A stretch of 64,000 nucleotides of DNA from Acidimicrobiaceae bacterium (GCA_003132305.1 PKXJ01000031.1:145616-209615), one strand, 5' to 3'; shown: positions 20,373-56,600, counted from the first letter of the stretch. The notes: generated from the sequence alone by a model not told the origin. Numbers and translations are program-made.

Positions 20373-20403
20373 GGGTGACGGTGGAACTGCTCAGCAGTCA
20401 CCC
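20373..20403 (-). terminator. Hairpin at the end of the adhesin gene
   Basis: GGGTGAC (20373-20379) pairs with GTCACCC (20397-20403). The loop holds a nested CTGCT/AGCAG palindrome. On the minus strand it follows the TAG stop directly. No U-run follows. It is a likely terminator or RNA-end stabiliser for the 670-codon gene. Confidence 0.5.
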
Positions 20404-24539: not shown

Positions 24540-24647
24540 GGTTCTCCACTCTAATTATTCGAACTTTCGAAATTACGAAATTCTGCGAACCTCGGATGTA
24601 ACGGGCCGATGAGACCGAGTGAGTCGGGTCGATTAGCCGCGCCGCAC

Positions 24648-25628: not shown

Positions 25629-25759
25629 CGTCACCCTCCTTTGATTCCCAGGGTTTTCAGAGTACACCCGCCGCTCATTAAACTGGGCTGGCATCTGGAG
25701 ATGTTGGTAACGGCGCTAGTCTCTAGATTCATTTCAATTTTCCCTAGCCCCGGGTGGTT

Positions 25760-26659
25760 ATGAACTCTTTCAGGAAACGTTCTCGTCGAGGGTTCGTGTT
25801 TGGTCTCGCGCATGCCACGTGGCGTCCGACCGTCGTCATCACGTTTGCCGTCGCGACCATCGCCTCATTGGTAGTGCAGTGGCCAACAATGGCGAATGCT
25901 CAAAGCGGTCCGAACCGGGTGATACTCGCTGATTTTAATGGCTCATTTCCGGTCGGTACACTCGACAGCGCGGAGCCTTCGGGATACAGCCCTCCCAGTA
26001 CGACCGCCCTAGCTGGTTACAAGTTGAACTACGTCGGCGACTTCACGGGGTCAGCCATTCCTCGGGGGTGGGACGTATTCAATGGAGTCCCAGGCGGCGA
26101 TCCGGGAGGTTTCTTTGGTGCTTCTCACGTGGTAGTCGCTAACGGTCTCTTGCAGCTCAATACCTTTCGGAATCCGGCGGCGGGGAATCGCTGGGTCACG
26201 GGCGGCTTGTGCCAATGCGGAGTTTCTCGTAAGTACGGCGCGTACTTCGTGCGCTCTCGACTGACCAGCGCCGGACCCAATGAAGTGGAGTTGCTCTGGC
26301 CCGCCACGAATAAGTGGCCACCCGAAATTGACTTCAACGAGACCGGCGGGTCGGCCACGTCGACGTCCACGTCAGTTCACTACGGAGTTACCAATCACAT
26401 CGTTAAAAGCCTGTTGAGGATCAACATGACCCTGTGGCATACCTGGGGAGTTATCTGGACACCCAAGTTCATTGTCTACACCGTTGACGGAAGGATCTGG
26501 GGGTCATTGAACGTCGCTTCAGAGATTCCCCGGGTGCGAATGACGCTCGACTTGGAGCAGATTCAACAGTGTCAAGAGGTACGTCAATGTCCCACTGCCC
26601 CAACCTCGATGCAGGTTAACTGGGTGGCTGAGTACGTGACGTCATCGACCCCTGGGTGA
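25760..26659 (+). CDS. Secreted GH16-family glycoside hydrolase-like protein (copy 1)
   Basis: 299 residues from ATG 25760 (the track start is a GTG two codons earlier). A twin-Arg-like basic N-terminus (SFRKRSRRGF) precedes a hydrophobic export segment. The GH16 beta-jelly-roll covers about residues 60-297. The catalytic ExDxxE box is WPPEIDFNE, with both acidic residues in place. Conserved family text includes GWDVFNGVPGGDP, WVTGGLCQCGVSRKYGAYFV and WHTWGVIWTP. Four copies of this domain occur in the window. Known GH16 enzymes cut beta-1,3/1,4-glucans or galactans; the substrate here is probably the cell's own or a neighbour's polysaccharide (inference). This copy is a bare catalytic domain. 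Confidence 0.85.
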   Translation: MNSFRKRSRRGFVFGLAHATWRPTVVITFAVATIASLVVQWPTMANAQSGPNRVILADFNGSFPVGTLDSAEPSGYSPPSTTALAGYKLNYVGDFTGSAIPRGWDVFNGVPGGDPGGFFGASHVVVANGLLQLNTFRNPAAGNRWVTGGLCQCGVSRKYGAYFVRSRLTSAGPNEVELLWPATNKWPPEIDFNETGGSATSTSTSVHYGVTNHIVKSLLRINMTLWHTWGVIWTPKFIVYTVDGRIWGSLNVASEIPRVRMTLDLEQIQQCQEVRQCPTAPTSMQVNWVAEYVTSSTPG

Positions 26660-26943: not shown

Positions 26944-27348
26944 ATGCAGATACTCGTGGGGACTGACGTCCAGCCCATTGAAGAGGTCGAGACGTCAATG
27001 CGACGGTTCGGGGTTCGCTATACGCGCCGACTCTTTACTGATATCGAACTTGAGAGTTGTGGCGAAAATCCTCTGACCGCAGCCAGCGGACTGGCTGGGC
27101 GATTTGCCGCGAAAGAAGCAGTACTGAAGATTCTTGACTCCCAAGATACCGTTCCGTCTTGGAGGTCGATTGAAGTCCAGCGCGCTAAGGGGGGGCGCCC
27201 GGAGATCGTGCTGCGTGGGGAGGCGGCCGAACTCGCTCGTCGCCAAGGTATTAGAGAGATGTCCTTGAGCCTCAGCCACGGTGGAGGCGTCGCCTTCGCG
27301 ACGGTGGTGGCGAGAGTGGCGCGGCGTCCGTCTAGGACGGACAGATGA
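26944..27348 (+). CDS. acpS: Holo-ACP synthase (4'-phosphopantetheinyl transferase, AcpS type)
   Basis: 134 residues from ATG 26944. The CoA/Mg-binding Asp8 is in VGTDVQPI, and Glu58 lies in GRFAAKEAVLK, the two metal ligands of AcpS. It transfers phosphopantetheine from CoA to a carrier protein serine. Its stop overlaps the start of an acyl carrier protein gene by 4 nt (ATGA), so the neighbouring ACP is its obvious target. It could instead be the only AcpS in the genome, but the coupling and the odd ACP make a dedicated enzyme likely. It heads a cassette with a double hydrolase and an ATP-grasp gene. Confidence 0.88.
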   Translation: MQILVGTDVQPIEEVETSMRRFGVRYTRRLFTDIELESCGENPLTAASGLAGRFAAKEAVLKILDSQDTVPSWRSIEVQRAKGGRPEIVLRGEAAELARRQGIREMSLSLSHGGGVAFATVVARVARRPSRTDR

Positions 27349-27605
27349 GCGACGCCGACGAAAAGATACGAAACGTGCTCGAAGAGCATGGACGCCTACC
27401 GGTGCCGGTGTCGACGTTAAACAATGGCGACGACCTGTATCAGAACGGGCTGTCGTCACACGCCAGCGTGAACGTCATGCTGGCCCTGGAAGACGAGTTC
27501 GACGTCGAGTTTCCGGATTCGCTCTTGAGAAAGGGTACGTTCCAGTCGGTGGCGGCGATTCGAGAGGCGCTGACGTCGTTAGGTGTCGTCATCGCTCCGG
27601 GCTAG
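27345..27605 (+). CDS. Acyl carrier protein, non-canonical
   Basis: 86 residues. The helical ACP fold is clear: DDLYQNGLSSHASVNVMLAL aligns with the canonical 'D-L-ADSLDTVELVMAL'. Ser38 is therefore the phosphopantetheine site, in SHA rather than the usual DSL. EDEFDVEFPDSLLRKGTF is the conserved helix II-III region. The start overlaps the acpS stop as ATGA. Such acyl/aminoacyl carriers next to ATP-grasp and hydrolase genes often belong to specialised assembly rather than fatty-acid synthesis (inference). Confidence 0.88.
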   Translation: MSDADEKIRNVLEEHGRLPVPVSTLNNGDDLYQNGLSSHASVNVMLALEDEFDVEFPDSLLRKGTFQSVAAIREALTSLGVVIAPG

Positions 27606-27729: not shown

Positions 27730-29445
27730 GTGACAACGTCGGAGCACGCGGGCCCGCGGCTCGAACAGACGCTGTGGTTCGGGGCCGAGGAGCAGCCGCT
27801 CTTTGGCTGGCTGACCAGTCCTTCGAACGCACTGGCGCGAGGCGGGGTGCTCTTGGCGCCACCGATCGGACGCGAAGCATTCCCCGCGAGGCGCGTTCTG
27901 AAAAGCCTCGCGACATCCCTGGCCGCCCGGGGCTTCGTTACGCTCCGCTTCGACTATCACGGAACCGGTGACTCGAGTGGACACTTCGATGATCCGGATC
28001 GAGATCGGGCATGGGTCGACAGCGTGGCTGACGCGGCGGCGTTTCTGCGATCGCTCGGACTTTCGTCAATCTCTGCTGTCGGCATGAGATTCGGAGCCAC
28101 GCTCGTGGGTGCAGCGGCCGCTACACATGACCTGCGGTTCAAGTCGATGGTGTTGTGGGACCCCTGTGAATCGGGACGAAGTTATCTGCGCGAACTCACT
28201 GCACTCGAGGGTCTTCGTCGAGACGACTACGAGATTGACCCCGACGGATCAGTCGAAACCTCGGAGTTCGTTTTTACTCAACGAGCCGCGGTAGCGCTGC
28301 GCGCTCTGAGCTTGACCGACGTGAGTCCAAGACCACTCGCCGAGCGGGTCATGGTCGTCGAGCGGGGCGACCGCGTGATGTCCAAGAAACTGCGCCTTCG
28401 CCTCGATCGAGAGAAGGTTGATTGGGAGAGCACCTTCGAACAGGGCCCAATGATCGACGTCGAAGCGTTCTTCGCCGTTATGCCTGATCTAACCCTAAAT
28501 CGAATCGTCAACTGGTTAGGCGAGCCCTCCGACACGGTCGAACCGTTCGACGCCAGTGGCACGATGACGACCGCGGTGGTGTCGCGCGACTCTGGTGAGT
28601 ACACGGTGGAAGAGAGGAGCCTCGAACTCGGTCCGAGCGAGCTCTTCGGGGTGCTGAGCGAGCCGGTGGGTGACGCGCGTGGTCCCTGGATCGTGCTTTT
28701 GAACTCGGTGAACGACGACCACGTTGGGAGGGCGCGACTGTGGGTCGAACTTTCGCGACGGTGGGCTAGTTACGGTCTGCGCTGCGTGCGAGTCGACTTG
28801 AGCGGGTACGGGGACAGTCCTTCGCGGCTCGACGAACTCGCTCGCGTCGCGTACGACTCAAGATGGACGGGAGAGATGGTCGAAGTCGCACGGACCCTGA
28901 GTCCTGAGGACCCGTCGAACGTGGTCTTCATCGGCCTGTGCTCGGGTGCGTACGTCGCCATTGAGGGAGCGCTGGCGGTGCACGCGCGCGGGGTCTGCGC
29001 CATCAATCCTCCCGTATTCATCGACTATCTCCACGGCGTCGCTCGCCTGGAGGCGTCACGGCGAACGTCGGTGCGAGCATTGGGCCTTCACCTGAAGCGA
29101 TTGGCGCTGTCGCACCAGTGGGTTGCCGCTACGTTGGCCCGGTTCTCTCAGATGATGCTTCGTTCCGCTTACCCGACCGATGTGCTGAGCAAACTCGTCG
29201 ACGACGGGACCGACGTGCTCGTGCTTGCCAGCTTCGATGATTTGTCTCCTTGTCCCCGCACACCCTTCTTGCGCTCGATTGACTTGTGGCGAATGGGCAA
29301 GACGAAGAACTATCAGATTGAGTTCGTCCCCGGACTCGACCACGGGCTACACGGGGCGAAAGGCCGAGCTCGAGCCGTGTCCCTGCTCGACGGCAACGTT
29401 CTCGAGCGTTTTGCGCGCGCAGTATCCGGCACGGATCCGAAATGA
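27730..29445 (+). CDS. Fused double alpha/beta hydrolase (exosortase-associated hydrolase-like halves)
   Basis: 571 residues in two alpha/beta-hydrolase halves. Half 1 (about 20-260) has LAPPIGREAFP and RFDYHGTGDSSG, and its nucleophile elbow reads VGMRFGATL, with Arg where Ser would be expected. Half 2 (about 300-560) has RVDLSGYGDSPSR and the elbow IGLCSGAYVA with a Cys, and a C-terminal GLDHGLHG histidine. From memory the two elbows resemble the two hydrolases encoded in exosortase-A loci (GLRLGA and GLCDGA types), here joined in one chain. Half 2 could act through Cys/Ser, while half 1 may be structural. The start is GTG at 27730. No exosortase is in the window. Confidence 0.75.
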   Translation: MTTSEHAGPRLEQTLWFGAEEQPLFGWLTSPSNALARGGVLLAPPIGREAFPARRVLKSLATSLAARGFVTLRFDYHGTGDSSGHFDDPDRDRAWVDSVADAAAFLRSLGLSSISAVGMRFGATLVGAAAATHDLRFKSMVLWDPCESGRSYLRELTALEGLRRDDYEIDPDGSVETSEFVFTQRAAVALRALSLTDVSPRPLAERVMVVERGDRVMSKKLRLRLDREKVDWESTFEQGPMIDVEAFFAVMPDLTLNRIVNWLGEPSDTVEPFDASGTMTTAVVSRDSGEYTVEERSLELGPSELFGVLSEPVGDARGPWIVLLNSVNDDHVGRARLWVELSRRWASYGLRCVRVDLSGYGDSPSRLDELARVAYDSRWTGEMVEVARTLSPEDPSNVVFIGLCSGAYVAIEGALAVHARGVCAINPPVFIDYLHGVARLEASRRTSVRALGLHLKRLALSHQWVAATLARFSQMMLRSAYPTDVLSKLVDDGTDVLVLASFDDLSPCPRTPFLRSIDLWRMGKTKNYQIEFVPGLDHGLHGAKGRARAVSLLDGNVLERFARAVSGTDPK

Positions 29446-29518: not shown

Positions 29519-30847
29519 ATGGACGCGGGGTCGACTTTGACGAACGAACGGACCCGAGGCGCGGCGACGGACACGGATAGTTTCACTTCTTCGAGTCCGA
29601 GGCCAAAGTTGGCGTTCGTGTATAACCCTCGCTCTTTTGGAGCGATGGCGCTCGCCGACGCGGCGAATGGGCTGTGTGACCTGGTCTGGGTCGTCGACAC
29701 TTCCCACCCCGAAGTGGAATCGATGACGAGGCTGTTGCGAAGATTCGGTCCTTGCGTCGACGTGGCGGGACTCTCGATCGACGAAGCAGCGTCGAAGATT
29801 GCGGAACACGCTCCCCAGGGAATACTCTCGTTGGCCGATGATTCACTTCTCTGGACGGCGGAGGTCGCGATACGTCTGGGACTGACCTTCCTCTCACCAG
29901 CGACCGCGGCGCGACTGACTGACAAACACGTCCAACGTCAAGCCTTGCGTGAAGGCGGACTCAGCGTGCCAAGGAGTTGGCTGGTTCGACACGGTGAGGA
30001 AGAAACGGCGTGGTCAACCATCGCGAGCGAGGCCTCATTCCCCGCAGTACTCAAGCCGCGCCTGGGCGCCGGAAGCCGTGACACCATCCCCATAACGACG
30101 CCCGACGAACTTCGCGCGCTCGGAGCGTTGCCCCGGTCTTTCGATGACCATCCCCGCGACTTTGTCCTCGAAGAGTTCATCCCGGATGCGACCTACCCAG
30201 CTGGAGGAGAGGGTTTTGCTGGCTACGTGTCGGTTGAGAGTTTCGTGAGCGACGGCCACGTAACCCACCTCGCGATTAACGGTCGAATGCCGCCGGCCCC
30301 ACCGTTTCGAGAGACTGGATTCTTCATCCCGAGCGCGCTCGACAACGAGCAGGAACGGGCCGTTCTCGAAGTGGCGAGTCGGGCACTCACGGCGATGGGC
30401 GTCGTCGTTGGCTGTCTGCATACCGAGATCAAGCTCACGCCCACGGGTCCGATCGTCATCGAGGTCAACGGTCGCATTGGCGGCGGAGTGCCGCAACTGC
30501 TCGCTTCGGCCAATGGTGTGCGGATGCTATCTCTCGCCATGCGCCTGGCGTTGGGCGAGGAGGTCGTTTGCGACGAGATGCCACCCTGCAATCGTCTGGC
30601 GTACTTGTTCTACGTTCAAGCCCCGGAGGAGCTTCGAACGATCACTGCAGTGGAGGGATTGAACGAGCTTCAAAAAGTTGCCGGAGTCGACGAGATCATT
30701 CTCAATCGTGGCCCGGGCCAGAACGTTGACTGGCGAGAGGGGAATCTCGGCTACGTGTTTTCGGTCGCGGGCACGGTCGCCGATCACGTCGAGTTGCGTC
30801 ACGTCTACGGCCTCGTCGCGTCGCTCGTACGCATCAGTGGTGATTAA
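29519..30847 (+). CDS. ATP-grasp ligase (copy A)
   Basis: 442 residues from ATG 29519; the track's start at 29225 overlaps the hydrolase gene and adds a non-homologous leader. An N-terminal pre-ATP-grasp domain (PKLAFVYNPRSFGAMALADA) precedes the ATP-grasp core: LTDKHVQRQALREGGL, FPAVLKPRLGAGSRDT (Lys), FVLEEFIPD and the metal-ligand box TEIKLTPTGPIVIEVNGRIG (Glu, Asn). It would ligate a carboxylate to an amine or thiol through an acyl-phosphate. It resembles the second ATP-grasp at 37926-39221 along its whole length. Its position after ACP and hydrolase genes suggests that it makes or uses an amino-acid conjugate, which is not proven. Confidence 0.85.
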   Translation: MDAGSTLTNERTRGAATDTDSFTSSSPRPKLAFVYNPRSFGAMALADAANGLCDLVWVVDTSHPEVESMTRLLRRFGPCVDVAGLSIDEAASKIAEHAPQGILSLADDSLLWTAEVAIRLGLTFLSPATAARLTDKHVQRQALREGGLSVPRSWLVRHGEEETAWSTIASEASFPAVLKPRLGAGSRDTIPITTPDELRALGALPRSFDDHPRDFVLEEFIPDATYPAGGEGFAGYVSVESFVSDGHVTHLAINGRMPPAPPFRETGFFIPSALDNEQERAVLEVASRALTAMGVVVGCLHTEIKLTPTGPIVIEVNGRIGGGVPQLLASANGVRMLSLAMRLALGEEVVCDEMPPCNRLAYLFYVQAPEELRTITAVEGLNELQKVAGVDEIILNRGPGQNVDWREGNLGYVFSVAGTVADHVELRHVYGLVASLVRISGD

Positions 30848-30945: not shown

Positions 30946-32712
30946 TCAACTTCCCCTTCGCCGAGGATCAGGTTGCGCGCCGCGGACCAGCGTCCCGGGA
31001 AGTTGACCCGTAGCGAGGCCGTCTTCGAAGGTCACCGACCCACGTTTAATGGTCCAGCGGTACCCCGACGCCGCCTGCAAGAGACGACGCCCACCCGCAG
31101 GGAGATCCGTGACGATCCTTGGCGACGCGCACGCCAATCCCTCGAAGTCGACGACGTTGAGATCGGCGAGTAGGCCCGGCGCGACGAGGCCCCGGTCGAA
31201 CCAACCGAAGTGTGACGCCGGGCGACGAGTCAGCTGGTGAATAACCGATTCAATCGGAATCCTCTCCTCGCTGTTTCGATCACGAGCCCATAGCGTCATG
31301 TAGCTCGTCGTCATGCTCGCGTCACAGATCGCGCCACAGTGCGCGCCGCCGTCCGAGAGTCCGAACATCGCCACGGGAGACGTGATCATCTCGCGGACCG
31401 CGTCGAGGTTACCGTCGACGAAGTTGAAGAGGGGCGTGTAGATAAGTTGACGCCCGTCAAGCTGCAGTTGCACGTCGTAGGCGTACTCGCGCGGATTGAG
31501 TCCCCTACGTCGCGCCGTGGCCCCGAGCGACTGGCCTCGGTCCAGGTCGTAGTTGACCGGATCGTCGAGGACGTACATGTCATCGAATCGACCGAAGAAA
31601 GCGTGCCCCGCGAAGGCGTCGTCCCCGGAGGTGAGCGTGGCGTGACCGTCGAGGATTCGTTGGCGAAGGGCGGGGTCTTGGAGCGCAGTGACCCGCTCCG
31701 CGAGTGGCAGATCGGCGACCAGACCGTAGGCCCGCGTCGGGGTGAACACGTTGGCTGACGCTTGGAGACCGAGGAGTACGCCGATCGGACGCGGGGCGAC
31801 TTGAGCCTTGACGTCCAGTCCCTCGGCCCCGAGCGACTCGGCGAGGGCGACGAGATCGCGCCATCGCTCGGGGGCTTCAAGGTCTTGTTGTACCGAGTAA
31901 CTCACCGGACGCTGGCTCGTGCGAGCGAATTCGGCGATAAGTGTGAACTCCTCGGCGGCGAAGTCGTCGTTAGTGGTGCGATAACTATCCGAGACGAGCT
32001 GGAAGACGCCCTTGCCGGTCGCTCGCATTACCGACGCCAGGGCTTGAAGTTCCGGCTCACGGGCTCGGAGCGTCCCGAGGTTCTCACCCCTAACGGTGCG
32101 GTGGCGCTCGGTACGCGACGTTGAGATTCCGAGCGCTCCCGCGTCGAGTCCCTGTTCGAGCAAGTGGGCCATCGTGGTCAGCTCACCCTCGTTGGGCTGT
32201 TCGCCGGGATCCGCTCCGCGCTCGCCCATAACGAAAGCGCGCAACGCGGCGTGCGGAAGGTGAGCGCCCACGTCGATCGTGCGCGCTTGGCGCTCGAGCG
32301 CGTCGAAATACTCGGTGAACGACTCCCAGTCCCAGCGCAGTCCTTCGTGCAGAGCGGTCCCGGGGATATCTTCAACCCCCTCCATCATCTCGATTAACTC
32401 GTCGTGGCGATCGGGGACGACGGGGGCGAACCCCACGCCGCAGTTACCCATTGCGACGCTCGTCACGCCGTGGTGCGAGGAGGGCGCGAGCCACGGATCC
32501 CACGTCGCTTGCCCGTCATAGTGGGTGTGGGGGTCCACGAACCCCGGGGTCACGAGCAGGCCCTCCGCGTCAATCTCGCGACGGCCCTGGAGAATATCGC
32601 CGCCAACCGCGACGATCCGATCGCCTTCGATGGCGACGTCGGCCCGGCGCGAAGGACCACCAGTGCCGTCGACCACGACGCCGTTTCGAATCACCAGATC
32701 TGCACTCACCAC
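30946..32712 (-). CDS. N-acyl-D-amino-acid deacylase/D-aminoacylase-like amidohydrolase
   Basis: 588 residues, full length for the family. Strand DLVIRNGVVVDGTGGPSRRA and GLLVTPGFVDPHTHYDGQAT open the amidohydrolase barrel, with His62 and His64 as metal ligands. The family-typical LGISTSRTERHR and SDGGAHCGAICDASM segments follow. This is the D-aminoacylase (N-acyl-D-amino acid hydrolase) group, in which a zinc site cleaves the acyl group from D-amino acids. Related members hydrolyse other N-acyl compounds, so the substrate is tentative. The start is GTG at 32712. It is 14 nt downstream of the aldo/keto reductase stop on the same strand. Both may serve degradation or tailoring of modified amino acids. 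Confidence 0.85.
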   Translation of the reverse strand: MVSADLVIRNGVVVDGTGGPSRRADVAIEGDRIVAVGGDILQGRREIDAEGLLVTPGFVDPHTHYDGQATWDPWLAPSSHHGVTSVAMGNCGVGFAPVVPDRHDELIEMMEGVEDIPGTALHEGLRWDWESFTEYFDALERQARTIDVGAHLPHAALRAFVMGERGADPGEQPNEGELTTMAHLLEQGLDAGALGISTSRTERHRTVRGENLGTLRAREPELQALASVMRATGKGVFQLVSDSYRTTNDDFAAEEFTLIAEFARTSQRPVSYSVQQDLEAPERWRDLVALAESLGAEGLDVKAQVAPRPIGVLLGLQASANVFTPTRAYGLVADLPLAERVTALQDPALRQRILDGHATLTSGDDAFAGHAFFGRFDDMYVLDDPVNYDLDRGQSLGATARRRGLNPREYAYDVQLQLDGRQLIYTPLFNFVDGNLDAVREMITSPVAMFGLSDGGAHCGAICDASMTTSYMTLWARDRNSEERIPIESVIHQLTRRPASHFGWFDRGLVAPGLLADLNVVDFEGLACASPRIVTDLPAGGRRLLQAASGYRWTIKRGSVTFEDGLATGQLPGTLVRGAQPDPRRRGS

Positions 32713-32726: not shown

Positions 32727-33602
32727 TCAGCCGCCCATCGCCCAGCGGCGCAAGGGTTTACGCGCGTTGGTCAACTCTTGATACTGGACGTCGCTTAGCT
32801 CGATCTTCGCTGCGGCGCAGTTCTCTTCTAGGTGCTCGAGCGATTTGGTGCCGGGAATGGGCACCATCACCGAAGAGCGGCGAAGGATCCAAGCCAAGCA
32901 GACTTGCGAAACGGTGGCACCGAGTACGTGAGCGACCTCATCGAGGGGACCACCGGGCGCGGACAGTTTGCCACTGCCCAGTGGGAACCACGGTATGAAG
33001 CCGATTCCGTGCTGCTCGCAGTAGTCAACAACATCGTCCGCACTCCTTTGAGCGATGTTGTACTGATTCTGCACGCTGACGACAGGGACGATACGTTGGG
33101 CCGCTTCAATCTGCGCGACACTCACTTCGGAGAGTCCGACTTCGCGCACCTTGCCCTCGTCACGTAACGCCTTTAGTAGTTCGAACTGCTCGTCGGCTGG
33201 AACCTTGGCGTCGACTCGGTGAAGTTGAAAGAGGTCGATCCGTTCGACGCCGAGGCGACGAAGGCTGCCCTCACACTGTTGACGCAGGTAGTCCGGCCGT
33301 CCGCACTCTTCCCATTGGTCTGGCCCGGAACGGGTAAATCCCGCCTTGGTGGCGATTTTGAGCGTCTCGGGATACGGGTGGAGCGCCTCGTGGATGAGCT
33401 CTTCGGCCACGTTGGGTCCGTAGGAGTCCGCGGTGTCGAGGAAGTCGACGCCGAGCTCCACGGCGCGACGTAGGACCTGGAGGGAACCGGCGTGGTCACG
33501 TGGCGGGCCCCAGACGCCGCGGCCGGTGAGTTGCATCGTCCCGAATCCGAGCCGGTGCACGTTCAACGTGCCAATTTGTAGCGTGCCAGCGTCACCCGCC
33601 AT
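32727..33602 (-). CDS. Aldo/keto reductase
   Basis: 291 residues from ATG 33602, which follows GAGGAGG at 6 nt; the track start six codons earlier is less likely. A TIM-barrel AKR with the catalytic Asp/Tyr in DFLDTADSYGPNVAEE and Lys in ATKAGFTRSG. HRVD replaces the usual catalytic His segment (LHR). NADPH binding is via the C-terminal IPGTKSLEHLEEN. It reduces aldehydes or ketones in the cytoplasm; the substrate is unknown. The N-terminal 'RLGFGTMQLTGRGVW' is family-standard. The amidohydrolase follows on the same strand. Confidence 0.9.
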   Translation of the reverse strand: MAGDAGTLQIGTLNVHRLGFGTMQLTGRGVWGPPRDHAGSLQVLRRAVELGVDFLDTADSYGPNVAEELIHEALHPYPETLKIATKAGFTRSGPDQWEECGRPDYLRQQCEGSLRRLGVERIDLFQLHRVDAKVPADEQFELLKALRDEGKVREVGLSEVSVAQIEAAQRIVPVVSVQNQYNIAQRSADDVVDYCEQHGIGFIPWFPLGSGKLSAPGGPLDEVAHVLGATVSQVCLAWILRRSSVMVPIPGTKSLEHLEENCAAAKIELSDVQYQELTNARKPLRRWAMGG

Positions 33603-33830
33603 TACCCGCCTCCTCGTCAACGTTGTCCCTAGAGGCCCGCAAAGGTACGAAGCCTATATGGAGCGTCGGGCAATCTTATCTACACGCTGCGCGTAAATCG
33701 ACGGCCTAACCTGGTTTAACTGCGTGAGAGAAGGGACCGCCCCAAGCATGAAGTTGTGGTGTCATAGGGGTGCGGCGCGCTCGGCGAACGCGGGCGCGGG
33801 ACCCGTTCGGTGCCCTACTCGCGCCGTACG

Positions 33831-35645
33831 ATGATCGAATTTGCCATCGTCGGGCTCGGTTCTTGGGGCCTCTGCGTACTGGAGAGAGCGGTGAGCCGAG
33901 CCCGCACGACGACGACCTCCATCCGCCTTCATCTAGTAGAGCCGGGTCAACTGGGCGGCGGGGTCTACACCACAGAACAGCCCGACTACCTCGTGCTCAA
34001 TAACCCCTGCGGGCAGCTCTCGCTGTACGCGTCGCCCGACAGTGGCGAAGAACCGCCCTACGCCATGGGTCTCTACGAGTGGGCCGTCGAAAAGGGTTAT
34101 CGCTGGGTGGGATACGAATGCCGGATTGGACCTGACGGTGTATCGATTCTTCCGACCGACTACCTACCTCGACGGGTCCTCGGCGAATACCTGGCCTGGT
34201 TCTACGACACGCTCATCGACGACGCCCCGGCGAATCTGGAGATCGTTCGTCACTACGCCGCCGCCACCGACATTTCGCCAGAGATCGGAAGCCGAGAGAC
34301 GGTGTCGCTCGACAACGGGACGTCGATCAGCGTTGACCACGTGGTGCTCACGTCGGGACATACCTATAACGACGAACCCCTGAACAACGCGACCGACGTC
34401 CGCTATCGGCGACCGTATCCCGTTGAGTATTTCGACACGTCGGTGGCGCCCGGCGCCTCCATCGCCATCGCCGGAATGGGACTGGTGGGCTTCGATCTGC
34501 TCACGGCGCTCACCATCGGTCGTGGGGGCACCTACGAGGACGTCGGTGACCGCAAACACTACGTGCCAAGTGGCCTAGAGCCGGACATCTATCTCTACTC
34601 CAGATCTGGAGTTCCCTACTGCGCGAAGTCGGCTCATGGGGTGGATCCCACTGGTGACTATGAGCCCATCGTGTGCACGCCAGCCGCGTTCAAGGAACTG
34701 ACCAATCCGGTGGGCTCACCGCTTCGCCGGCGCGTGGATTTTCGTAACGATCTCCTCCCACTCCTCTACGCCGAGATGCAGGGGCGCTACTACACGCACG
34801 CCGCTTTCTTGAAGGGGAGCGCTTCGGCCGCTGCGTTGGTCCGAGAGCAACTGCGCGCTGGTTGGGCCGATGGTAACTTCAATCGGGTCGTCGAAGGGCT
34901 CGAGCCGATCTACGGCAGCTTCCATCCCGCCGACTACGTGTTCGCCGATGCGGGAGCGAGTTTTCAGTCCAGTCGTGACTACCAGTCCCACGTCCATGAG
35001 ATGATCGAAACCGACCTCGACGAGGCGCTCGCGGTCGGGGGCAGTCCGGTCAAGGCGGCCCTCGAGGTGACGCGCATCCTGCGGGACCAACTTCGCGAGA
35101 TCATAGAGTTCGGCGGGCTCTCTCTCGAGTCGTACATCGACTTCCAGTCCAACGTGCGCGGTCGAATCAATCGCCTCGAGGCTGGTCCGCCGCCGCTGCG
35201 CTCGCAACAACTCCTCGGTCTGCTCGACGCCGGTGTGGTCCGCGTCCCGTTTGGACCCCACCCCGACGTCACCGCGACCGCCCAAGGTACCGTCCTCATA
35301 AGATCCACGAGACTGGCGCACGCGACCGAGGCCACCGTCGACGTAGTGGTGCGCGGTCACCTGGATTTGCCGTCCCTGGCCCGATCGAGCTCGGCCCTGC
35401 TCAGTCGTATGTACGCCAAGGGACGTCTGACCCAGTTCAGTTACGGGGACACGACGGTGGGGAGCGTCGCGATCAGCGAAGACTTCCATCCCTACGACGC
35501 CGAGGGTCGACTTCAGTCGAACCTTTCGCTGCTCGGTGTCCTCACTGAAGGAGTGCGCTACTTCACGCACTATCTGCCCTCACCGCGCAGTCGATTGCGA
35601 GCCGTTTACGATGCGCAGCAGTGTGTGAAATCGATCATCGGATGA
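33831..35645 (+). CDS. FAD/NAD(P)-binding protein, large flavoenzyme of unknown reaction
   Basis: 604 residues from ATG 33831; a GTG seven codons upstream (33810) is possible. The N-terminal nucleotide-binding loop is FAIVGLGSWGLCVLE, followed by LHLVEPGQLGGGVYTTEQPD and LNNPCGQLSLY. VVLTSGHTYND and a second glycine-rich region SIAIAGMGLVGFDLL place it in the NAD_binding_9/FAD-NAD(P)-binding group. These are found as stand-alone proteins near amino-acid-tailoring genes, some acting as N- or C-hydroxylases. The reaction is unknown. It converges on the MetY-like gene 27 nt away. No ribosome site is obvious. Confidence 0.8.
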   Translation: MIEFAIVGLGSWGLCVLERAVSRARTTTTSIRLHLVEPGQLGGGVYTTEQPDYLVLNNPCGQLSLYASPDSGEEPPYAMGLYEWAVEKGYRWVGYECRIGPDGVSILPTDYLPRRVLGEYLAWFYDTLIDDAPANLEIVRHYAAATDISPEIGSRETVSLDNGTSISVDHVVLTSGHTYNDEPLNNATDVRYRRPYPVEYFDTSVAPGASIAIAGMGLVGFDLLTALTIGRGGTYEDVGDRKHYVPSGLEPDIYLYSRSGVPYCAKSAHGVDPTGDYEPIVCTPAAFKELTNPVGSPLRRRVDFRNDLLPLLYAEMQGRYYTHAAFLKGSASAAALVREQLRAGWADGNFNRVVEGLEPIYGSFHPADYVFADAGASFQSSRDYQSHVHEMIETDLDEALAVGGSPVKAALEVTRILRDQLREIIEFGGLSLESYIDFQSNVRGRINRLEAGPPPLRSQQLLGLLDAGVVRVPFGPHPDVTATAQGTVLIRSTRLAHATEATVDVVVRGHLDLPSLARSSSALLSRMYAKGRLTQFSYGDTTVGSVAISEDFHPYDAEGRLQSNLSLLGVLTEGVRYFTHYLPSPRSRLRAVYDAQQCVKSIIG

Positions 35646-35672
35646 CCTCGCGGCCTCGCAAGGGGCTGGCCC

Positions 35673-36947
35673 TCATCCCGTCGCCCGAGCCAGTGCCTGA
35701 TCGATGTCCTCAATGAGATCGTCCACGTGCTCAAGCCCGATGGAGAGCCGAATGGCCTCGGGGCGCGTTCCGGTCGCCAGCAACTCTGACGCACTGAGTT
35801 GGCGATGCGTGGTCGAGGCCGGGTGGATTGCGAGCGACTTCGCGTCACCCAGATTGAGGAGTCGTTTGAAGAGTTGCAAGGAGTCAAAGAACGCCAGACC
35901 GGCGTCGTAGCCGCCGACGGCGCCGAAGGTGATGATCGAGGGCACGCGACCGTTCAGATAGCGCTGTACCAGGTGGTGGTAAGGATGATCAGCGAAACCG
36001 GCGAAACTTACCCACTCAACGCGCGCGTCGTCCCGGAGGTAGTCGGCGACGGCACGCGCGTTGGCTTCGTGACGCTCGAGGCGAACGGCCAACGTCTCTA
36101 GCCCCTGGAGAAATTGAAACGAGCTGAAGGGAGAAAGGGTGGCGCCGGTGTTGCGCAGTTGGATCGAACGAGCGCGCACCACGAACGCTCGCTCCGGGAA
36201 GTCGCGGGCGAAGACTACGTTGTGAAACGCTGGCTCGGGTTGATTGAAGGTAGGGAAACGCTCGGCGTGCTCGGTCCAAGGGAACGAGCCGCCGTCGATG
36301 ATCACGCCACCGAGCGTCGTGCCGTGTCCGCCAATGAATTTCGTCAGCGAGTGGATGACCACGTCGGCGCCATGGTGAATCGGCTTCAGCATCAATGGAG
36401 TGGCGACCGTGTTGTCGACGATGAGTGGCACCCCGGCGCGATGCGCGACGTCGGCGACCGCTTCTAAGTCCACCACGTTGCCCGCAGGATTACCGATGGA
36501 CTCTAAGAAGACGCACGCGGTGCGCTCGTCGATCAAGGCCGCGATGGAGTCGGCTCGGTCGTCGACGGCGAAGCGCGCGTCGATACCGAGGGTGGATAAC
36601 ACGTGGGCGAAGTACGTGTACGTGGCGCCGTAGAGCTGGGGCGCCACCACGATGTTCGAACCGGCGAGGGCGACGGTCAAGATCGAGTAACTCACGGCCG
36701 CCATGCCCGACGCCACGACCAGAGCGGCCGTGCCACCCTCCAAGGCCGCCATGCGTTTTTCGAGGACGTCGTTCGTGGGATTATTGATTCGGTTGTAGTG
36801 GAATCCGGGTATCGCGAGGTCCATGATCGCGTTGGCGTGTTCGGCGTCGATGAAGTCGTGGGCGACCGTCTGATAGATGGGCACCGCTACCGCCCGCGTG
36901 CTGTCGCCTTGGTAACCACCATGGATGGCGATGGTCTCGTCATGCAT
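35673..36947 (-). CDS. MetY-like PLP enzyme (O-acylhomoserine sulfhydrylase family)
   Basis: 424 residues, full length for O-acetylhomoserine aminocarboxypropyltransferase. The PLP Lys203 is in IHSLTKFIGGHGTTLGG, and Asp178 (VDNT) binds the pyridine nitrogen. YNRINNPTNDVLEKRMAALE and ASGMAA are family text. Family members replace the acyl group of O-acylhomoserine with sulfide or other nucleophiles, or make vinylglycine-type intermediates. As it follows a MetA-like gene by only 4 nt and an ATP-grasp gene before that, it may serve a special amino acid rather than methionine (inference). It is last in a three-gene operon. Confidence 0.88.
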   Translation of the reverse strand: MHDETIAIHGGYQGDSTRAVAVPIYQTVAHDFIDAEHANAIMDLAIPGFHYNRINNPTNDVLEKRMAALEGGTAALVVASGMAAVSYSILTVALAGSNIVVAPQLYGATYTYFAHVLSTLGIDARFAVDDRADSIAALIDERTACVFLESIGNPAGNVVDLEAVADVAHRAGVPLIVDNTVATPLMLKPIHHGADVVIHSLTKFIGGHGTTLGGVIIDGGSFPWTEHAERFPTFNQPEPAFHNVVFARDFPERAFVVRARSIQLRNTGATLSPFSSFQFLQGLETLAVRLERHEANARAVADYLRDDARVEWVSFAGFADHPYHHLVQRYLNGRVPSIITFGAVGGYDAGLAFFDSLQLFKRLLNLGDAKSLAIHPASTTHRQLSASELLATGTRPEAIRLSIGLEHVDDLIEDIDQALARATG

Positions 36948-36951
36948 TGAC

Positions 36952-37926
36952 TCAGTCCTTCCTCTTCGTCTCGCCAGCCAACCAGTTGGCGTAAAAACGT
37001 TGGGCCATCGAACGCCAGGGCCAGTTAGCCCGCGCGCTGACTTCTTCGAAGGGGTACGACGCTAGGGGTTCTAGTTCACGTCGGCCCCCGACAATCGTAC
37101 GGTGCAGCTGTTTGAGTTGCTCCCAGTCTTCGGGGGCCACGCAGTGATACGGCAGGGGAGGCAGGTCGTCGCGCTCGTGGCGCACGTAGCGCTCAGCGTC
37201 GCGCCTGTATTCGCGCAGCAGGCTGGCGGGCTCGTACTCGGGATGTCCCTGGACGATCACCAGATTGGACCCGTCAAACGCTCGGGTGGCCACGCTCCAT
37301 CCGACGGCGTCCGAACGTATCACGATCCGATAGCCGGCGTCGCGCAGAGCCTCTTCCGGAACGGTGTTGGTGCGCGAATGGGGTAGGAAAACCTCGGGCT
37401 CCAGCCCGGAACAAAGCGCGTTGGCAACGTCGACTTCCTGAAGAAAGAGGCCGGTACATTTTGCCGTCAGACGTTGTCGCTCCACGCCGTCGAAGACGGC
37501 GAGGGCCGCGTGAGCCGAGAGGCACGACAGAAGAATGGACGGAACACGCTCACGGGCCCACGAGAGGAGTTCGACGAGATCCTCCCAGTAGGGCACGTCG
37601 CGAATCTCGGGCTCTATCGGGTTCGATCCGGTCACGATCAAAAGGTCGGGCGGGTCGACGTAGGCGGCCGCGACGGGAGCGTACTGCTCGGTGATCCTCG
37701 TTGCGGTTCGCGCGCCCCTCGGCACGCCGAGCATCACGTAACGACGAACCTCGATGATGTCGGACCCCGAACCGGCTTCGAGCAGACCTAGGAACTGTCG
37801 CTCCGTCGCGTCGAAGGCGCCGTCGGGCATATTGTTCACGAACGCACAGGTCCAACGCGTAGCTCGGTCACTCGTCTCGGGCGGGTCGTGACGCGAGGAC
37901 GCGGCTGGGACGAGCCGCACGGTCAC
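36952..37926 (-). CDS. MetA-like homoserine O-acyltransferase
   Basis: 324 residues. The glutamine-amidotransferase-like fold of MetA/HTS is present. Nucleophile Cys135 (LLSCLSAHAAL), His228 and Glu230 (VQGHPEYEP) form the Cys-His-Glu triad, with spacing (93 and 2 residues) like that recalled for Bacillus MetA. The segment NNMPDGAFDATERQF matches 'NLMP-K--TE-Q'. It would activate homoserine, or a related hydroxy amino acid, as its O-acyl ester. The start is GTG at 37926, overlapping the ATP-grasp stop by one base; the MetY-like gene follows after 4 nt. The odd N-terminus and gene company make a non-methionine role plausible. Confidence 0.85.
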   Translation of the reverse strand: MTVRLVPAASSRHDPPETSDRATRWTCAFVNNMPDGAFDATERQFLGLLEAGSGSDIIEVRRYVMLGVPRGARTATRITEQYAPVAAAYVDPPDLLIVTGSNPIEPEIRDVPYWEDLVELLSWARERVPSILLSCLSAHAALAVFDGVERQRLTAKCTGLFLQEVDVANALCSGLEPEVFLPHSRTNTVPEEALRDAGYRIVIRSDAVGWSVATRAFDGSNLVIVQGHPEYEPASLLREYRRDAERYVRHERDDLPPLPYHCVAPEDWEQLKQLHRTIVGGRRELEPLASYPFEEVSARANWPWRSMAQRFYANWLAGETKRKD

Positions 37927-39221
37927 TAGTAGTGGCTCACGTTGGCGTAGGTGACCGTTACCTCTTGGTTGAGCAGTCGATTCACCGCTTGCAACTCGGT
38001 GTAGTCCCCGGCTGCACCGACCACCGCCATTATGTGGTTCCGTGACCCGTCCCTCCAGTCCAGGTCGGCCCCGGGTCCTTGGTGCACGGTGATCGTGTCG
38101 ACGCCGGGGTGGTCACTCACCGCGTCGAGGCCAGTGATCGCTGCCACCGTGGCCGAAACGGCCGGGGGTTGCAAGAAGAACCGGTAACCAATGCAATGGG
38201 TAGCGACGGGCGCGTCGAAGTGCATCGCTTCACCGAGGGCCACGCGCAAGGTCATCGCCACGAGCGGTACTCCCGCGGCCCGATCGAGCATCTCGGGCAC
38301 GCCGCCGCCGACGCGTCCGTTGACCTCGATTATTCGCGGACCGTCGGGCGTGAACTTGATCTCGGTGTGCAGACAGCCGGTGTGCACGCCGAGGGCTTCA
38401 ATCGCCGACGTGGCGAGTTCCAGTGCGGCCGATTGGTCGACGTCATCGAGATCGGCCGGAATAAAGAATCCGGTCTCACGAAAGTTCTCGGCCAGGGGGA
38501 AACGGCCGGTCAGGGCTAAGTGGCTGATGACGTTTTTCGAAACGACGCTCTCGACCGAGACGTAGGCGGCGTAGGGGTCGTTGGCTCGTGCCGGATCGTC
38601 CGCGAGGTATCCCTCGAGGACCATGTCCGGTCGATCGGGACCGATCGCTGTGAGGTACCGCGCCAAGTGTTCTCGGTCATTGACGAGAAAGGTGTAGCGA
38701 CTGCCCTGAGCCGAACGTGGTTTAAGGACCGCGGGCCAGCCCACGTCTAATTCGATGGAAGCGAGATCCTTCTCGGATTGGTCGGGCCCGATAACGTGAC
38801 ACGCGGGCGTGGCGAGACCGGCGTCGCTCAACACGCGACGCTGTTCGAACTTGTCGGTGAGCGCGACGGCCGTCTCGAAGGAGTGAAACGGCACCTGTAA
38901 AGCTTCGGCGACCCGCGCGTACGTCGACATGTTCGCGTCGAGGTACGTGACCAGCCCATCTGGTTCATAGGGCGAGGCGAGTTCCTTCAGGATTTGGTCG
39001 ACCCCGAGCCCGCTGACGTTCACGACTGGACCGAAGCGGTTGAGTAGTTCGGTGATCTGAAGCATCTCCGGCAGGGAACCGTCGATCAACCAGAGCAAGT
39101 CGCAGATGTTTGCGGCAGCTTCAGTCAACTGCATCACCGGTACGCAGCGCGGCCCGTAACCTACGGCGACAAGTGGCCGCTTCTCGCTGGACTTCGAATC
39201 GATCGTGCCCGTAGCCACCAA
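37926..39221 (-). CDS. ATP-grasp ligase (copy B)
   Basis: 431 residues. It is paralogous to copy A over its whole length. Shared text includes YVSVES, RETGFFIP, GCLHTEIK and IEVNGR(I/V)GGGVP. The ATP-grasp core has LTDKFEQRRVLSDAGL, WPAVLKPRSAQGSRYT and the metal ligands in TEIKFTPDGPRIIEVNGRVG. It probably joins two amino acids, or an amino acid and another acid, with ATP. It is first in an operon with the MetA-like and MetY-like genes, overlapping the former by one base. The upstream gap to the divergent LLM gene is about 100 nt and would hold both promoters. Confidence 0.87.
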   Translation of the reverse strand: MVATGTIDSKSSEKRPLVAVGYGPRCVPVMQLTEAAANICDLLWLIDGSLPEMLQITELLNRFGPVVNVSGLGVDQILKELASPYEPDGLVTYLDANMSTYARVAEALQVPFHSFETAVALTDKFEQRRVLSDAGLATPACHVIGPDQSEKDLASIELDVGWPAVLKPRSAQGSRYTFLVNDREHLARYLTAIGPDRPDMVLEGYLADDPARANDPYAAYVSVESVVSKNVISHLALTGRFPLAENFRETGFFIPADLDDVDQSAALELATSAIEALGVHTGCLHTEIKFTPDGPRIIEVNGRVGGGVPEMLDRAAGVPLVAMTLRVALGEAMHFDAPVATHCIGYRFFLQPPAVSATVAAITGLDAVSDHPGVDTITVHQGPGADLDWRDGSRNHIMAVVGAAGDYTELQAVNRLLNQEVTVTYANVSHY

Positions 39222-39327
39222 GCGAATGTTAGCGTTGAACCGGATGATTGCCTGATTGACAACTCAGCGCTTGGCGAGGTTGCACGGGACTACTTTGTTG
39301 ACCACGGGAACGGAGGACGTGAAGGCA

Positions 39328-40506
39328 ATGCCAGTCGAAATAATCGGAATGGTGGGCACGAGAGACGCCTCTGAAATTAAGGGGCCTCTCGTCGACGGTC
39401 CAGTCGTCGACTGGATGGACGGCCCGGTGATCGACCCCGATTATCTGGTGGATATATCACGGGCCCACGACGACGGGGGCTTCGATCGCGTCCTCGTGGG
39501 CTACGGGGCGGTGGCCCCCGAAGGCTGGGCGGTGGCCGCGACGGTGTTGCACTGCACCAATCATCTAAAGGTAATGGTCGCGCACCGGCCCGGCTTCGTC
39601 CAGCCGGTGCTGCTCGCGCGCATGGCGGCCACCCTTGACCACCTCACGGGGGGCGGGCGGATCGGCATCCACTTCATCACCGGTGGCGACGAGGCTGATC
39701 AGCGTCGAGAGGGCGACTTCGTGCCCCACGACGCGCGCTACCGGCGCACCGGCGAGGTGATGGCGATCGCGCGGCGCCTCTGGAGCGAGGATGCCCCGTT
39801 TGATTTTGAAGGGGAGTTCTTTCGCTACGAAGGCGCCTTCAGTTCAGTGAAGCCGCTCACCCCGGGGGGCATCCCTCTCTACTTCGCGGGCGCTTCCGCG
39901 CCGGCCATTGAAGTCGGCGCCGCGCAAGCCGACATCTACGCCTTTTGGGGGGAGCCACGAGCGGCGGTGAAAGCTCGGAAGGATGCCATCGATCAAGTCG
40001 CCGCGAAGTACGGGCGCACTCTTCGCTACAGCATCTCGCTACGGCCGATCATCGCTGACACCGAAGCTGAGGCGTGGGAGAAGGCGGAGTGGATTGCCGA
40101 AAAGACGGAAGAGCGGATCGAACTGGCCAAGGAGAGAATGGCCGGTCATAAAGCTACCTACCAAGGTCTCGGCGGGGAACGAAACGCCACCTACGCGGTC
40201 AACCGCGACACGAGCGGTACCACGTCGGTCGGTCGCAAGCGATTGATCGAAATGTCTGCCGACCAAGACGTTTACGATGAGCGCCTCTGGATGAAGGTAG
40301 CGAAGCTGACGGGCGCGGCGGGCAACTCAACGGCGCTCGTTGGCACGTGCGAGCAAGTTGCCGAAGCGATGCTCCGCTACTACGACCTCGGCATCACCAC
40401 ACTGCTGCTCAAGGGATTCGACCCGCTGGTAGACGCGATCGACTTCGGCGAGCGTCTACTTCCCCTTGTTCGCGAGGGCGCGGCGCGACGTGACGCCAGT
40501 GCCTGA
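39328..40506 (+). CDS. LLM-class flavin-dependent monooxygenase, alkanesulfonate-type (SsuD-like)
   Basis: 392 residues from ATG 39328, preceded by GGAGGACGTGAAGGCA; the track start 24 codons earlier gives an unlikely leader. It is a TIM-barrel luciferase-like monooxygenase. VAHRPGFVQPVLLARMAATL, GGRIGIHFITGGDEADQRREG and PLYFAGASAPAIEVGA match SsuD, the FMNH2-dependent alkanesulfonate monooxygenase that releases sulfite. Some relatives act on other sulfur compounds. It could supply sulfite or sulfide sulfur for the MetY-like enzyme (inference). An FMN reductase partner is not in the window. The GT2 gene begins 15 nt after its stop. Confidence 0.87.
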   Translation: MPVEIIGMVGTRDASEIKGPLVDGPVVDWMDGPVIDPDYLVDISRAHDDGGFDRVLVGYGAVAPEGWAVAATVLHCTNHLKVMVAHRPGFVQPVLLARMAATLDHLTGGGRIGIHFITGGDEADQRREGDFVPHDARYRRTGEVMAIARRLWSEDAPFDFEGEFFRYEGAFSSVKPLTPGGIPLYFAGASAPAIEVGAAQADIYAFWGEPRAAVKARKDAIDQVAAKYGRTLRYSISLRPIIADTEAEAWEKAEWIAEKTEERIELAKERMAGHKATYQGLGGERNATYAVNRDTSGTTSVGRKRLIEMSADQDVYDERLWMKVAKLTGAAGNSTALVGTCEQVAEAMLRYYDLGITTLLLKGFDPLVDAIDFGERLLPLVREGAARRDASA

Positions 40507-46853: not shown

Positions 46854-47726
46854 TTACTTCGACACGTACTCGGCCACCCAATCGATTTGCATGGAGACCG
46901 GTTGACTAGGGCATTGTCGGCCCAGGTTGCACAAAGTGCGCTGCTCAAGGTCGAGGGTAAGTGTCTTGTTGGGAATTTCGCCCAGGGAGGATATCTTTCC
47001 CCAAACCCTTCCGTCGACTACGTAAGAAATCGAGGTCGGTGTCCATACAACGCCCCAGGTGTGCCACTGATTCATTTCTGCCGCCACTGTTCGTTGATCA
47101 ATGTAGTTGAAGGAACTGTAGTGAACCGTCGACGATGTTGAATTCATCGAGCCGCCGCTCTCGTTAAAGTCAATCTCCGGCGGCCACACATTGTTGGCGG
47201 GCCAGAGCAGCTCGACCTCATTGGGCCCCGTTCCGGTCACTCGAGAACGCACGAAGTACGCACCGTACGTTCTGGCGAGTCCGCACTGGCATAGACCGCC
47301 CGTCACCCAAATGTTTTTAAAAAGTGGGTCCTTGAACGTGTTGAGGCTCAGTACGCCATTACTCACCACTACATGACTCAGCGCGAACATTCCGGTAGGG
47401 TCGCCTCCGGGTACTCCGTTAAATACGTACCATCCCGTTGGCAGTGAGTTGCCCGTAAAATCGTTCGCGTAGCTAAGTCTGTAGCCCGTGAGCGAGTTCG
47501 CTCCCGGTGGTCCTTCACCGGAGGGCTCGGCGCTGTTGACAACACCCACCGGGTACGGCGTGACGGAAGAAGGTCGAGCTAGGTTCGCAGATCGCAGTCC
47601 GAACCAAAGGGACCCTCCGAGGAGAACACCAACGACTAAGGCGATAAGAACTCTGAAACCCTTTCTCCTCGGAGTAGCTTTCCGGGACGACGACCGAGTG
47701 AGATCAGCGTCTGGGCGGGCGTTCAT
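46854..47726 (-). CDS. Secreted GH16-family glycoside hydrolase-like protein (copy 2)
   Basis: 290 residues. A basic N-terminus (RSSSRKATPRRKGF) and one hydrophobic segment (VLIALVVGVLLGGSLWFGL) give a signal or anchor. The GH16 jelly roll covers about residues 55-288: AEPSGEGPPGANSLTGY, GWYVFNGVPGGDP, VTGGLCQCGLARTYGAYFV and WPPEIDFNE, with both catalytic Glu of the ExDxxE box. WHTWGVVWTP is family text. It is otherwise a bare catalytic domain, like copy 1. The gene lies between a methyltransferase and a GT-B glycosyltransferase, which supports a role in trimming or remodelling the local glycan (inference). Confidence 0.85.
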   Translation of the reverse strand: MNARPDADLTRSSSRKATPRRKGFRVLIALVVGVLLGGSLWFGLRSANLARPSSVTPYPVGVVNSAEPSGEGPPGANSLTGYRLSYANDFTGNSLPTGWYVFNGVPGGDPTGMFALSHVVVSNGVLSLNTFKDPLFKNIWVTGGLCQCGLARTYGAYFVRSRVTGTGPNEVELLWPANNVWPPEIDFNESGGSMNSTSSTVHYSSFNYIDQRTVAAEMNQWHTWGVVWTPTSISYVVDGRVWGKISSLGEIPNKTLTLDLEQRTLCNLGRQCPSQPVSMQIDWVAEYVSK

Positions 47727-48010
47727 GATAGTTAAGAGAATAGTGAATGAGTGGGAACATTCATAGGACGCTCGTTTCGATGCCTGCTTCGACCAGCCGA
47801 ACGCTAAGGATCTCGCTTCCTCGTTGGCTGATCTTGTCGACGTGGGCTACGCGACTTTCGCACGGATGTTTGCGCATCGTCAATCTGCGCGGAACAGTTC
47901 TCGAATGAAGGTTCGGCCCGTCTCCCTAGGGAAGGAGTCGGGGGAGCATTCGCTTCGAGAGAATGAGCGCGAAATGTACGCATCATGAATACTCTTGTGG
48001 CTACTGAGCA

Positions 48011-56595: not shown

Positions 56596-56600
56596 GCGAA

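What the first reader, a model, noticed from the sequence alone, without database searches (positions are those of the whole stretch)
33831..39221. Operon of ATP-grasp, MetA-like and MetY-like enzymes converging on a large FAD protein: candidate pathway for an unusual amino acid
MetA and MetY homologues normally make methionine, but here they are coupled to an ATP-grasp ligase (1-nt overlap, then a 4-nt gap) and sit next to a 604-residue FAD/NAD(P)-binding protein and an SsuD-like sulfur monooxygenase. O-acylhomoserine followed by gamma-replacement or elimination, then oxidation and ATP-dependent ligation, would yield a modified, possibly sulfur-containing amino-acid conjugate. The MetA triad Cys135-His228-Glu230 is intact. 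The product is unknown.
Basis: partly seen in the sequence, partly recalled or inferred. Interest (0 to 1): 0.8.

Follow-up and report, generated by a model that had tools for sequence, protein, structure and literature searches.

The report
N-hydroxylase–homoserine operon, product unknown
A conserved set of four bacterial genes (an enzyme that puts oxygen on nitrogen, two enzymes borrowed from methionine synthesis, and an amino-acid-joining enzyme) probably makes an unusual nitrogen–oxygen amino acid from homoserine; no description of it was found in the open-access papers searched.

Summary
In detail: coordinates, 1-nt overlap, 4-nt gap, convergent FAD gene and intact MetA triad are all as described. 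The set is a real, selected unit. It recurs in Acidimicrobiia MAGs, Mycobacterium (including isolate E787), Dormibacterota and Solirubrobacterales. Elsewhere it is often a co-directional FAD>ATP-grasp>MetA>MetY operon, and the FAD and MetA proteins are naturally fused in three loci. In 172 genomes of the family, MetA and the FAD gene occur together (18 of 19 each; p=3e-22). The "large FAD protein" is not generic: sequence and model match L-aspartate N-hydroxylase (8cp2, Z=34), but substrate-site residues differ across the family (R13→W, N413→D), and no CreD-like lyase is nearby. Best reading: MetA/MetY build a gamma-substituted aminobutyrate from homoserine, the flavoenzyme supplies its N–O group, and the ATP-grasp ligates it. 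The substrates and order of steps are inferred. The sulfur idea and the SsuD-like gene are weakly supported; that gene is accessory and confined to Acidimicrobiaceae loci. Known enzyme families in an apparently undescribed combination: a new variant of a known kind.

The parts
33831..35645 (+). FAD/NADPH N-hydroxylating monooxygenase of the L-aspartate N-hydroxylase (FzmM/CreE) fold family; core gene
   Evidence: PF13454; phmmer 8cp2 E 1.5e-48; AF2 model pLDDT 87, VIA Z 34 to 8cp2/8cp5, next 17; catalytic Asn kept, substrate residues changed
35673..36947 (-). MetY-like PLP gamma-replacement enzyme, specialised clade; core gene
   Evidence: PF01053 397 bits, TIGR01326 559 bits over cut-off 495; about 60 positions separate 35 cluster from 11 housekeeping copies
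36952..37926 (-). MetA/HTS-like homoserine O-acyltransferase; core gene
   Evidence: PF04204 167 bits; AF2 model pLDDT 90, nearest HTS/HTA structures TM 0.7-0.8; triad C135-H228-E230 and R185, R242 invariant
37926..39221 (-). ATP-grasp L-amino-acid-ligase-like enzyme; usual fourth gene
   Evidence: nearest structures 3vot (BL00235) E 7.7e-38 and BacD with profile A7; HTE and EVNGR motifs invariant
39256..40506 (+). SsuD-like LLM flavin monooxygenase; accessory, Acidimicrobiaceae loci only
   Evidence: PF00296, TIGR03565 217 bits below cut-off 518; 12 of 42 loci
32727..33620 (-). aldo/keto reductase; accessory, conserved in the genus
   Evidence: PF00248; 10 of 42 loci
30946..32712 (-). amidohydrolase; accessory, conserved in the genus
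   Evidence: PF07969; 12 of 42 loci
29645..30847 (+). second ATP-grasp ligase, 42% identical to the first
   Evidence: the ORF starts further upstream at 29225
27730..29445 (+). two-domain alpha/beta hydrolase; accessory
   Evidence: PF12697; 14 of 42 loci
27345..27605 (+). stand-alone carrier protein of the NF005480 type
   Evidence: PP-binding; NF005480 102 bits over cut-off 72
26944..27348 (+). holo-ACP synthase for the carrier protein
   Evidence: PF01648 46 bits

Best explanation
A small specialised-metabolite pathway built on homoserine. MetA O-acylates homoserine; the MetY-like PLP enzyme replaces the acyl group at the gamma carbon; the FAD/NADPH flavoenzyme hydroxylates an amine so that the final side chain (or its nucleophile) carries an N-O function; the ATP-grasp ligase couples the resulting non-protein amino acid to a second amino acid (in other loci an A-domain with a carrier protein takes or shares this role). 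Shown computationally: the enzyme families and folds, catalytic residues, operon coupling, FAD-MetA fusion, co-occurrence, separate housekeeping metXY. Inferred: that the flavoenzyme acts on nitrogen of an amino acid other than aspartate, that MetY uses an N or O nucleophile, the order of steps, and that the product is a canaline-, N-hydroxydiaminobutyrate- or homoalanosine-like amino acid in a dipeptide.
For: Fold and sequence of the flavoenzyme match aspartate N-hydroxylase far above any other structure. Its substrate-site signature is conserved and differs from aspartate N-hydroxylase (R13 to W19, R266 to K273, N413 to D426; R409, R412, R416, R577 kept; the N413E mutant of the known enzyme loses aspartate hydroxylation, PMC10404684). 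Homologues of the flavoenzyme with the same D sit beside genes for the PLP and ornithine-cyclodeaminase-like enzymes that make 2,3-diaminopropionate in Deefgea and Streptomyces nigrescens, and an ATP-grasp relative sits with such genes in S. clavuligerus, so MetA/MetY could play the homologous role for a C4 side chain. FAD-MetA single-ORF fusions in L077, L087 and L082. MetA only where FAD is: 18 of 19, p 3e-22. Separate metY-metX in the own genome and metX in two Mycobacterium genomes. Evolution in step: distance correlations 0.86-0.95. MetY cluster-specific residues in the PLP loop (GFHYNRINNPT against GNIYTRIMNPT).
Against: No substrate or product is known and no activity was tested. The ATP-grasp is missing in 9 of 24 full-flank loci, though some of these have an A-domain instead. 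Methylomagnum has a flavoenzyme with the same W and D and no MetA/MetY, so the site does not by itself point to a homoserine-derived substrate. The diaminopropionate link rests on homologues only 31-36% identical, which lack the W.
Confidence: 0.45

Rival explanations
1. Sulfur route: MetY uses sulfide or a thiol to make homocysteine or another thioether amino acid, which is then N- or S-oxidised and ligated.
For: MetY scores over the TIGR01326 sulfhydrylase cut-off; an SsuD-like gene is next door in the window.
Against: SsuD-like gene is not part of the core and is absent from Mycobacterium and stand-alone operons; MetY has many cluster-specific changes around the PLP loop; no sulfur-supply gene was identified among the core neighbours.
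Confidence: 0.2
2. Nitrite supply: the flavoenzyme makes nitrosuccinate from aspartate as in the CreD/CreE pathway, and nitrite or 3-nitropropionate feeds the pathway.
For: Same fold family as FzmM/CreE; Arg409/412/416/577 and Asn62 kept.
Against: R13, R266, R276 and N413 changed across the family; no CreD-like lyase: the four PF00206 genes of the genome all lie on other contigs.
Confidence: 0.07
3. Methionine backup: the MetA/MetY pair is simply a second methionine route and the neighbours are incidental.
For: In seven family genomes with the operon no metX is found, and in several the operon MetY is the only one.
Against: metX is present in 12 of 19 operon genomes against 60 of 153 others, so no replacement pattern; FAD-MetA fusions; strict FAD-MetA co-occurrence; diverged MetA substrate loop.
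Confidence: 0.08
4. Gamma-elimination: MetY acts as a lyase on O-acylhomoserine (vinylglycine or 2-oxobutyrate), and the flavoenzyme and ligase act on a different amino acid; the link is supply of a C4 unit.
For: The family includes gamma-lyases; the nearest structures include a MetY-type methionine gamma-lyase (8wko).
Against: Nothing specific; closest characterised relatives mostly catalyse replacement.
Confidence: 0.1

Closest known systems
L-aspartate N-hydroxylases (FzmM, CreE, AlnM, Tri21; structure 8cp2)
   Same: Whole-length fold (VIA Z 34), FAD and NADPH motifs, catalytic Asn62, Arg409/412/416/577
   Different: Substrate residues R13, R266, R276, N413 replaced, with W and D in their place across the family; no CreD-like lyase partner
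D-cycloserine pathway (DcsE acyltransferase, DcsD PLP replacement, DcsG ATP-grasp; from own knowledge)
   Same: Logic of O-acylating a hydroxy amino acid, PLP replacement by an N-O nucleophile, ATP-grasp closure
   Different: Homoserine instead of serine, unrelated acyltransferase (HTS) and flavin instead of haem N-oxygenation; analogy only, no homology tested
L-alanosine pathway (diaminopropionate, A-domain, carrier protein, AlnG)
   Same: A-domain and stand-alone carrier protein partners; N-hydroxylated diamino acid; homologues of the ATP-grasp and the flavoenzyme occur with diaminopropionate genes
   Different: Here MetA/MetY take the place of SbnA/SbnB; no AlnG-like dehydrogenase among the window genes scanned
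Housekeeping MetX/MetY methionine synthesis
   Same: MetY homology (49% identity to the own metY)
   Different: MetA instead of MetX, specialised MetY clade, coupled to N-hydroxylase and ligase
ATP-grasp L-amino acid ligases (BL00235, BacD)
   Same: Fold family, HTE and EVNGR motifs
   Different: Distant in sequence; substrates unknown; scores below all NCBIfam equivalog cut-offs

Membership tests
L-aspartate N-hydroxylase (FzmM/CreE) | Three-domain fold with helical substrate domain between FAD and NADPH domains | tested here: met
   VIA Z 34.0 over 560 residues, next entries 17
L-aspartate N-hydroxylase (FzmM/CreE) | Catalytic Asn62 above flavin C4a | tested here: met
   Asn in all sequences aligned
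L-aspartate N-hydroxylase (FzmM/CreE) | Aspartate entry chamber R13, R276, R416, R577, N413 | tested here: not met
   R13 is W in every sequence covering it, N413 is D in all but two (one N, one E), R276 not kept; R416 and R577 kept
L-aspartate N-hydroxylase (FzmM/CreE) | Partner nitrosuccinate lyase (CreD type) | tested here: not met
   All four PF00206 genes on other contigs
Homoserine O-acyltransferase MetA (HTS) | Cys-His-Glu triad and substrate arginines (E. coli R193, R249) | tested here: met
   C135, H228, E230, R185, R242 invariant
Homoserine O-acyltransferase MetA (HTS) | Lys46/47 and Gly/Glu111 acyl-donor switch (roles from own knowledge) | tested here: not met
   MPKK replaced by MPDGAF; position 111 is Ile104 here, Arg in several relatives
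Homoserine O-acyltransferase MetA (HTS) | Acyl transfer from succinyl- or acetyl-CoA to homoserine | not testable with these tools
   needs enzyme assay
O-acetylhomoserine sulfhydrylase MetY | Family score and PLP lysine | tested here: met
   TIGR01326 559 over 495 bits; K203 in TKFIGGHG
O-acetylhomoserine sulfhydrylase MetY | Housekeeping active-site loop | tested here: not met
   GFHYNRINNPT against GNIYTRIMNPT and dozens of other near-fixed differences
L-amino acid ligase (ATP-grasp) | ATP-grasp fold with LAL-type motifs | tested here: met
   Profile to 3vot E 7.7e-38, BacD 1.4e-25; by sequence, no model was folded
L-amino acid ligase (ATP-grasp) | Dipeptide formation | not testable with these tools
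   needs enzyme assay
Alanosine-type pathway | Diaminopropionate genes and AlnG-like dehydrogenase | tested here: not met
   none of the window genes scanned between 20.4 and 60.8 kb matches these families; the window was not scanned in full

The most novel reading that the evidence does not exclude
A new biosynthetic logic in which an aspartate-N-hydroxylase-type flavoenzyme makes an N-O nucleophile that a MetY-type enzyme attaches to O-acylhomoserine, giving a canaline- or homoalanosine-like amino acid that an ATP-grasp ligase cyclises or joins to another amino acid: a homoserine counterpart of the cycloserine route.
Probability: 0.25. Interest if true: 0.75.

Novelty: new variant of a known kind. 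Interest (0 to 1): 0.6.

Why it matters
It would define a compact, transferable three- to four-gene pathway for an N–O amino acid in uncultured soil and peat Actinobacteria and in Mycobacterium, where an isolate (E787) makes it testable. It adds a new branch, with a changed substrate site, to a flavoenzyme family whose characterised members (as far as read here) act on aspartate, and shows methionine enzymes recruited for specialised metabolism. Ten library searches found no description of this combination; the library holds open-licence papers only.

Tried and rejected
Housekeeping methionine route: rejected on separate metY-metX and no replacement pattern. Nitrosuccinate/nitrite route: disfavoured. 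Plasmid searches for MetA relatives gave only distant housekeeping copies under 35%. Literature searches for homoalanosine, canaline/cyclocanaline, O-ureidoserine, nitrosuccinate plus homoserine, and Acidimicrobiia clusters found nothing describing this set. The aaRS-like amino acid:[carrier protein] ligase was considered as a core partner; it is absent from the own genome and only loosely associated (8 of 19 operon genomes). Reading the A-domain specificity code by eye gave no recognisable substrate and is not used.

Full report
Observation. Families: FAD-NAD(P)-binding PF13454, Cys/Met PLP PF01053, HTS PF04204, ATP-grasp. The MetA triad C135-H228-E230 is intact and invariant among 20-23 homologues.

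What the FAD protein is. The only strong structural relative by sequence is 8cp2, Streptomyces sp. V2 L-aspartate N-hydroxylase (E 1.5e-48; PMC10404684). An AlphaFold2 model made only from the window protein and fetched loci (pLDDT 87) aligns to 8cp2 and 8cp5 with VIA Z 34 over 560 residues; the next entries score 17. The catalytic Asn62 is kept. Of the residues that bind aspartate or sulfate in 8cp2, R409, R412, R416 and R577 are kept, while R13 is Trp and R266 is Lys in every sequence of the core loci that covers them, N413 is Asp in all but two, and R276 is not kept. It is therefore very likely an N-hydroxylating monooxygenase for another substrate. Two distant homologues with the same Asp lie beside diaminopropionate-type genes (Deefgea, S. 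nigrescens); these lack the Trp. Methylomagnum has Trp and Asp but no MetA/MetY neighbour. Residue numbers of the window protein such as W19 and D426 count from the GTG at 33810; subtract 7 for the ATG at 33831.

Not housekeeping. The own genome (2.9 Mb, 95% complete) has a metY-metX pair on contig C11 and a cystathionine-type enzyme beside a cysteine/cystathionine synthase-like protein on C16. In 172 genomes of the family the flavoenzyme (strong match) is in 19 and HTS in 19, shared by 18 (Fisher p 3e-22; genomes are related, so the p value overstates independence). metX is in 72 of 172; in 12 of 19 operon genomes and 60 of 153 others, so the operon does not stand in for metXY. In seven operon genomes no metX is found, and in those the operon copies may be the only ones. 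Two Mycobacterium genomes carry full metX.

Conservation of the unit. A scan of 84,980 species genomes with the flavoenzyme profile gave 43 loci: Acidimicrobiaceae and other Actinomycetota MAGs, Mycobacterium (isolate E787 and MAGs), Dormibacterota, Solirubrobacterales. Of 24 loci with at least 6 kb on both sides, MetY is near in 22, MetA in 22, ATP-grasp in 15, A-domain in 13, LLM in 9. In Mycobacterium and several Acidimicrobiia the order is FAD>ATP-grasp>MetA>MetY on one strand, sometimes with overlapping ORFs (L074), and in L074, L075 and L079 the operon lies among genes that look unrelated (to judge by their sequences, his and trp genes in L074). In L077 and L087 the flavoenzyme and MetA form a single ORF of 924 and 945 aa; L082 shows the same fusion with the flavoenzyme N-terminus in a separate ORF. 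Pairwise distances of FAD, MetA and MetY correlate at 0.86-0.95 over 27 loci (this partly reflects shared ancestry). dN/dS between the window and L050 is 0.07-0.25.

Specialisation. Cluster MetY (35 sequences) and housekeeping MetY (11) separate in the tree (the node support of the cluster side is not informative because of the rooting) and differ at about 60 near-fixed positions, including the PLP-contacting loop. MetA keeps the triad and both substrate arginines but lacks the E. coli lysines after Met-Pro and has neither Gly nor Glu at the acyl-donor switch (residue roles from own knowledge). The ATP-grasp is nearest to dipeptide-forming L-amino acid ligases.

Mechanism. Best reading: homoserine is acylated (MetA), substituted at the gamma carbon (MetY), given an N–O group by the flavoenzyme directly or through its nucleophile, and ligated (ATP-grasp, or A-domain with the NF005480 carrier protein in other loci). 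Families and coupling are shown; substrates, order and product are inferred. The sulfur variant, the nitrite variant, a methionine backup and a gamma-elimination variant are the rivals, weighed in the fields above.

Accessory genes. In the window a carrier protein, its holo-synthase, a second ATP-grasp, an alpha/beta hydrolase, an amidohydrolase and an aldo/keto reductase flank the core. The amidohydrolase, aldo/keto reductase and SsuD-like genes were found only in Acidimicrobiaceae loci. In the own genome the A-domain lies on contig C21 with a second MetA.

Novelty. Ten paper searches in an open-licence library found no description of this combination. The enzymes are of known families; the combination and the altered flavoenzyme site are what is new.

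Noticed in passing
L030:7581-10375 (G000:C21), L099:6084-9267, L100:8465-11128: Remnant of a second copy of the cluster in three species: MetA and a stand-alone A-domain intact (90-94% identical between species, dN/dS about 0.3, low dS 0.10-0.19), flanked by truncated ATP-grasp and MetY pieces; the low dS suggests recent transfer.
   Followed up: partly
L091:8023-9426, L089:5512-6697, L072:20291-21521: aaRS-like amino acid:[carrier protein] ligase (NF005479; 429 bits over cut-off in L091) next to its carrier protein close to the flavoenzyme; the window has the carrier protein but its genome lacks the ligase.
   Followed up: partly
L114:12019-21404: S. clavuligerus pSCL4 locus with an ATP-grasp 36% identical to the window's, two diaminopropionate-type genes, an acyl-CoA-dehydrogenase-like gene, carrier protein and A-domain: an alanosine-like cluster, judged from sequence by eye apart from the ATP-grasp and A-domain.
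   Followed up: partly
L096:9909-16411: S. nigrescens plasmid SNP1: PALP and ornithine-cyclodeaminase-like genes, flavoenzyme homologue, cystathionine-gamma-synthase-like enzyme and, to judge by its N-terminus, a membrane protein in a row.
   Followed up: no
window 46854-60780 and 20403-26659: Several GH16-like proteins (two 62% identical, two 60% identical), one with an OmpA domain, plus glycosyltransferases: the cluster sits in a polysaccharide region, and glycosyltransferase-like genes also neighbour it in L066, L067, L071, L077 and L087.
   Followed up: no
L062:8853-10019: PLP aldolase (threonine aldolase/GntG-like, 64 bits, below cut-off 230) directly upstream of and overlapping the flavoenzyme in Mycobacterium sp. 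E787; could supply glycine or a beta-hydroxy amino acid.
   Followed up: no
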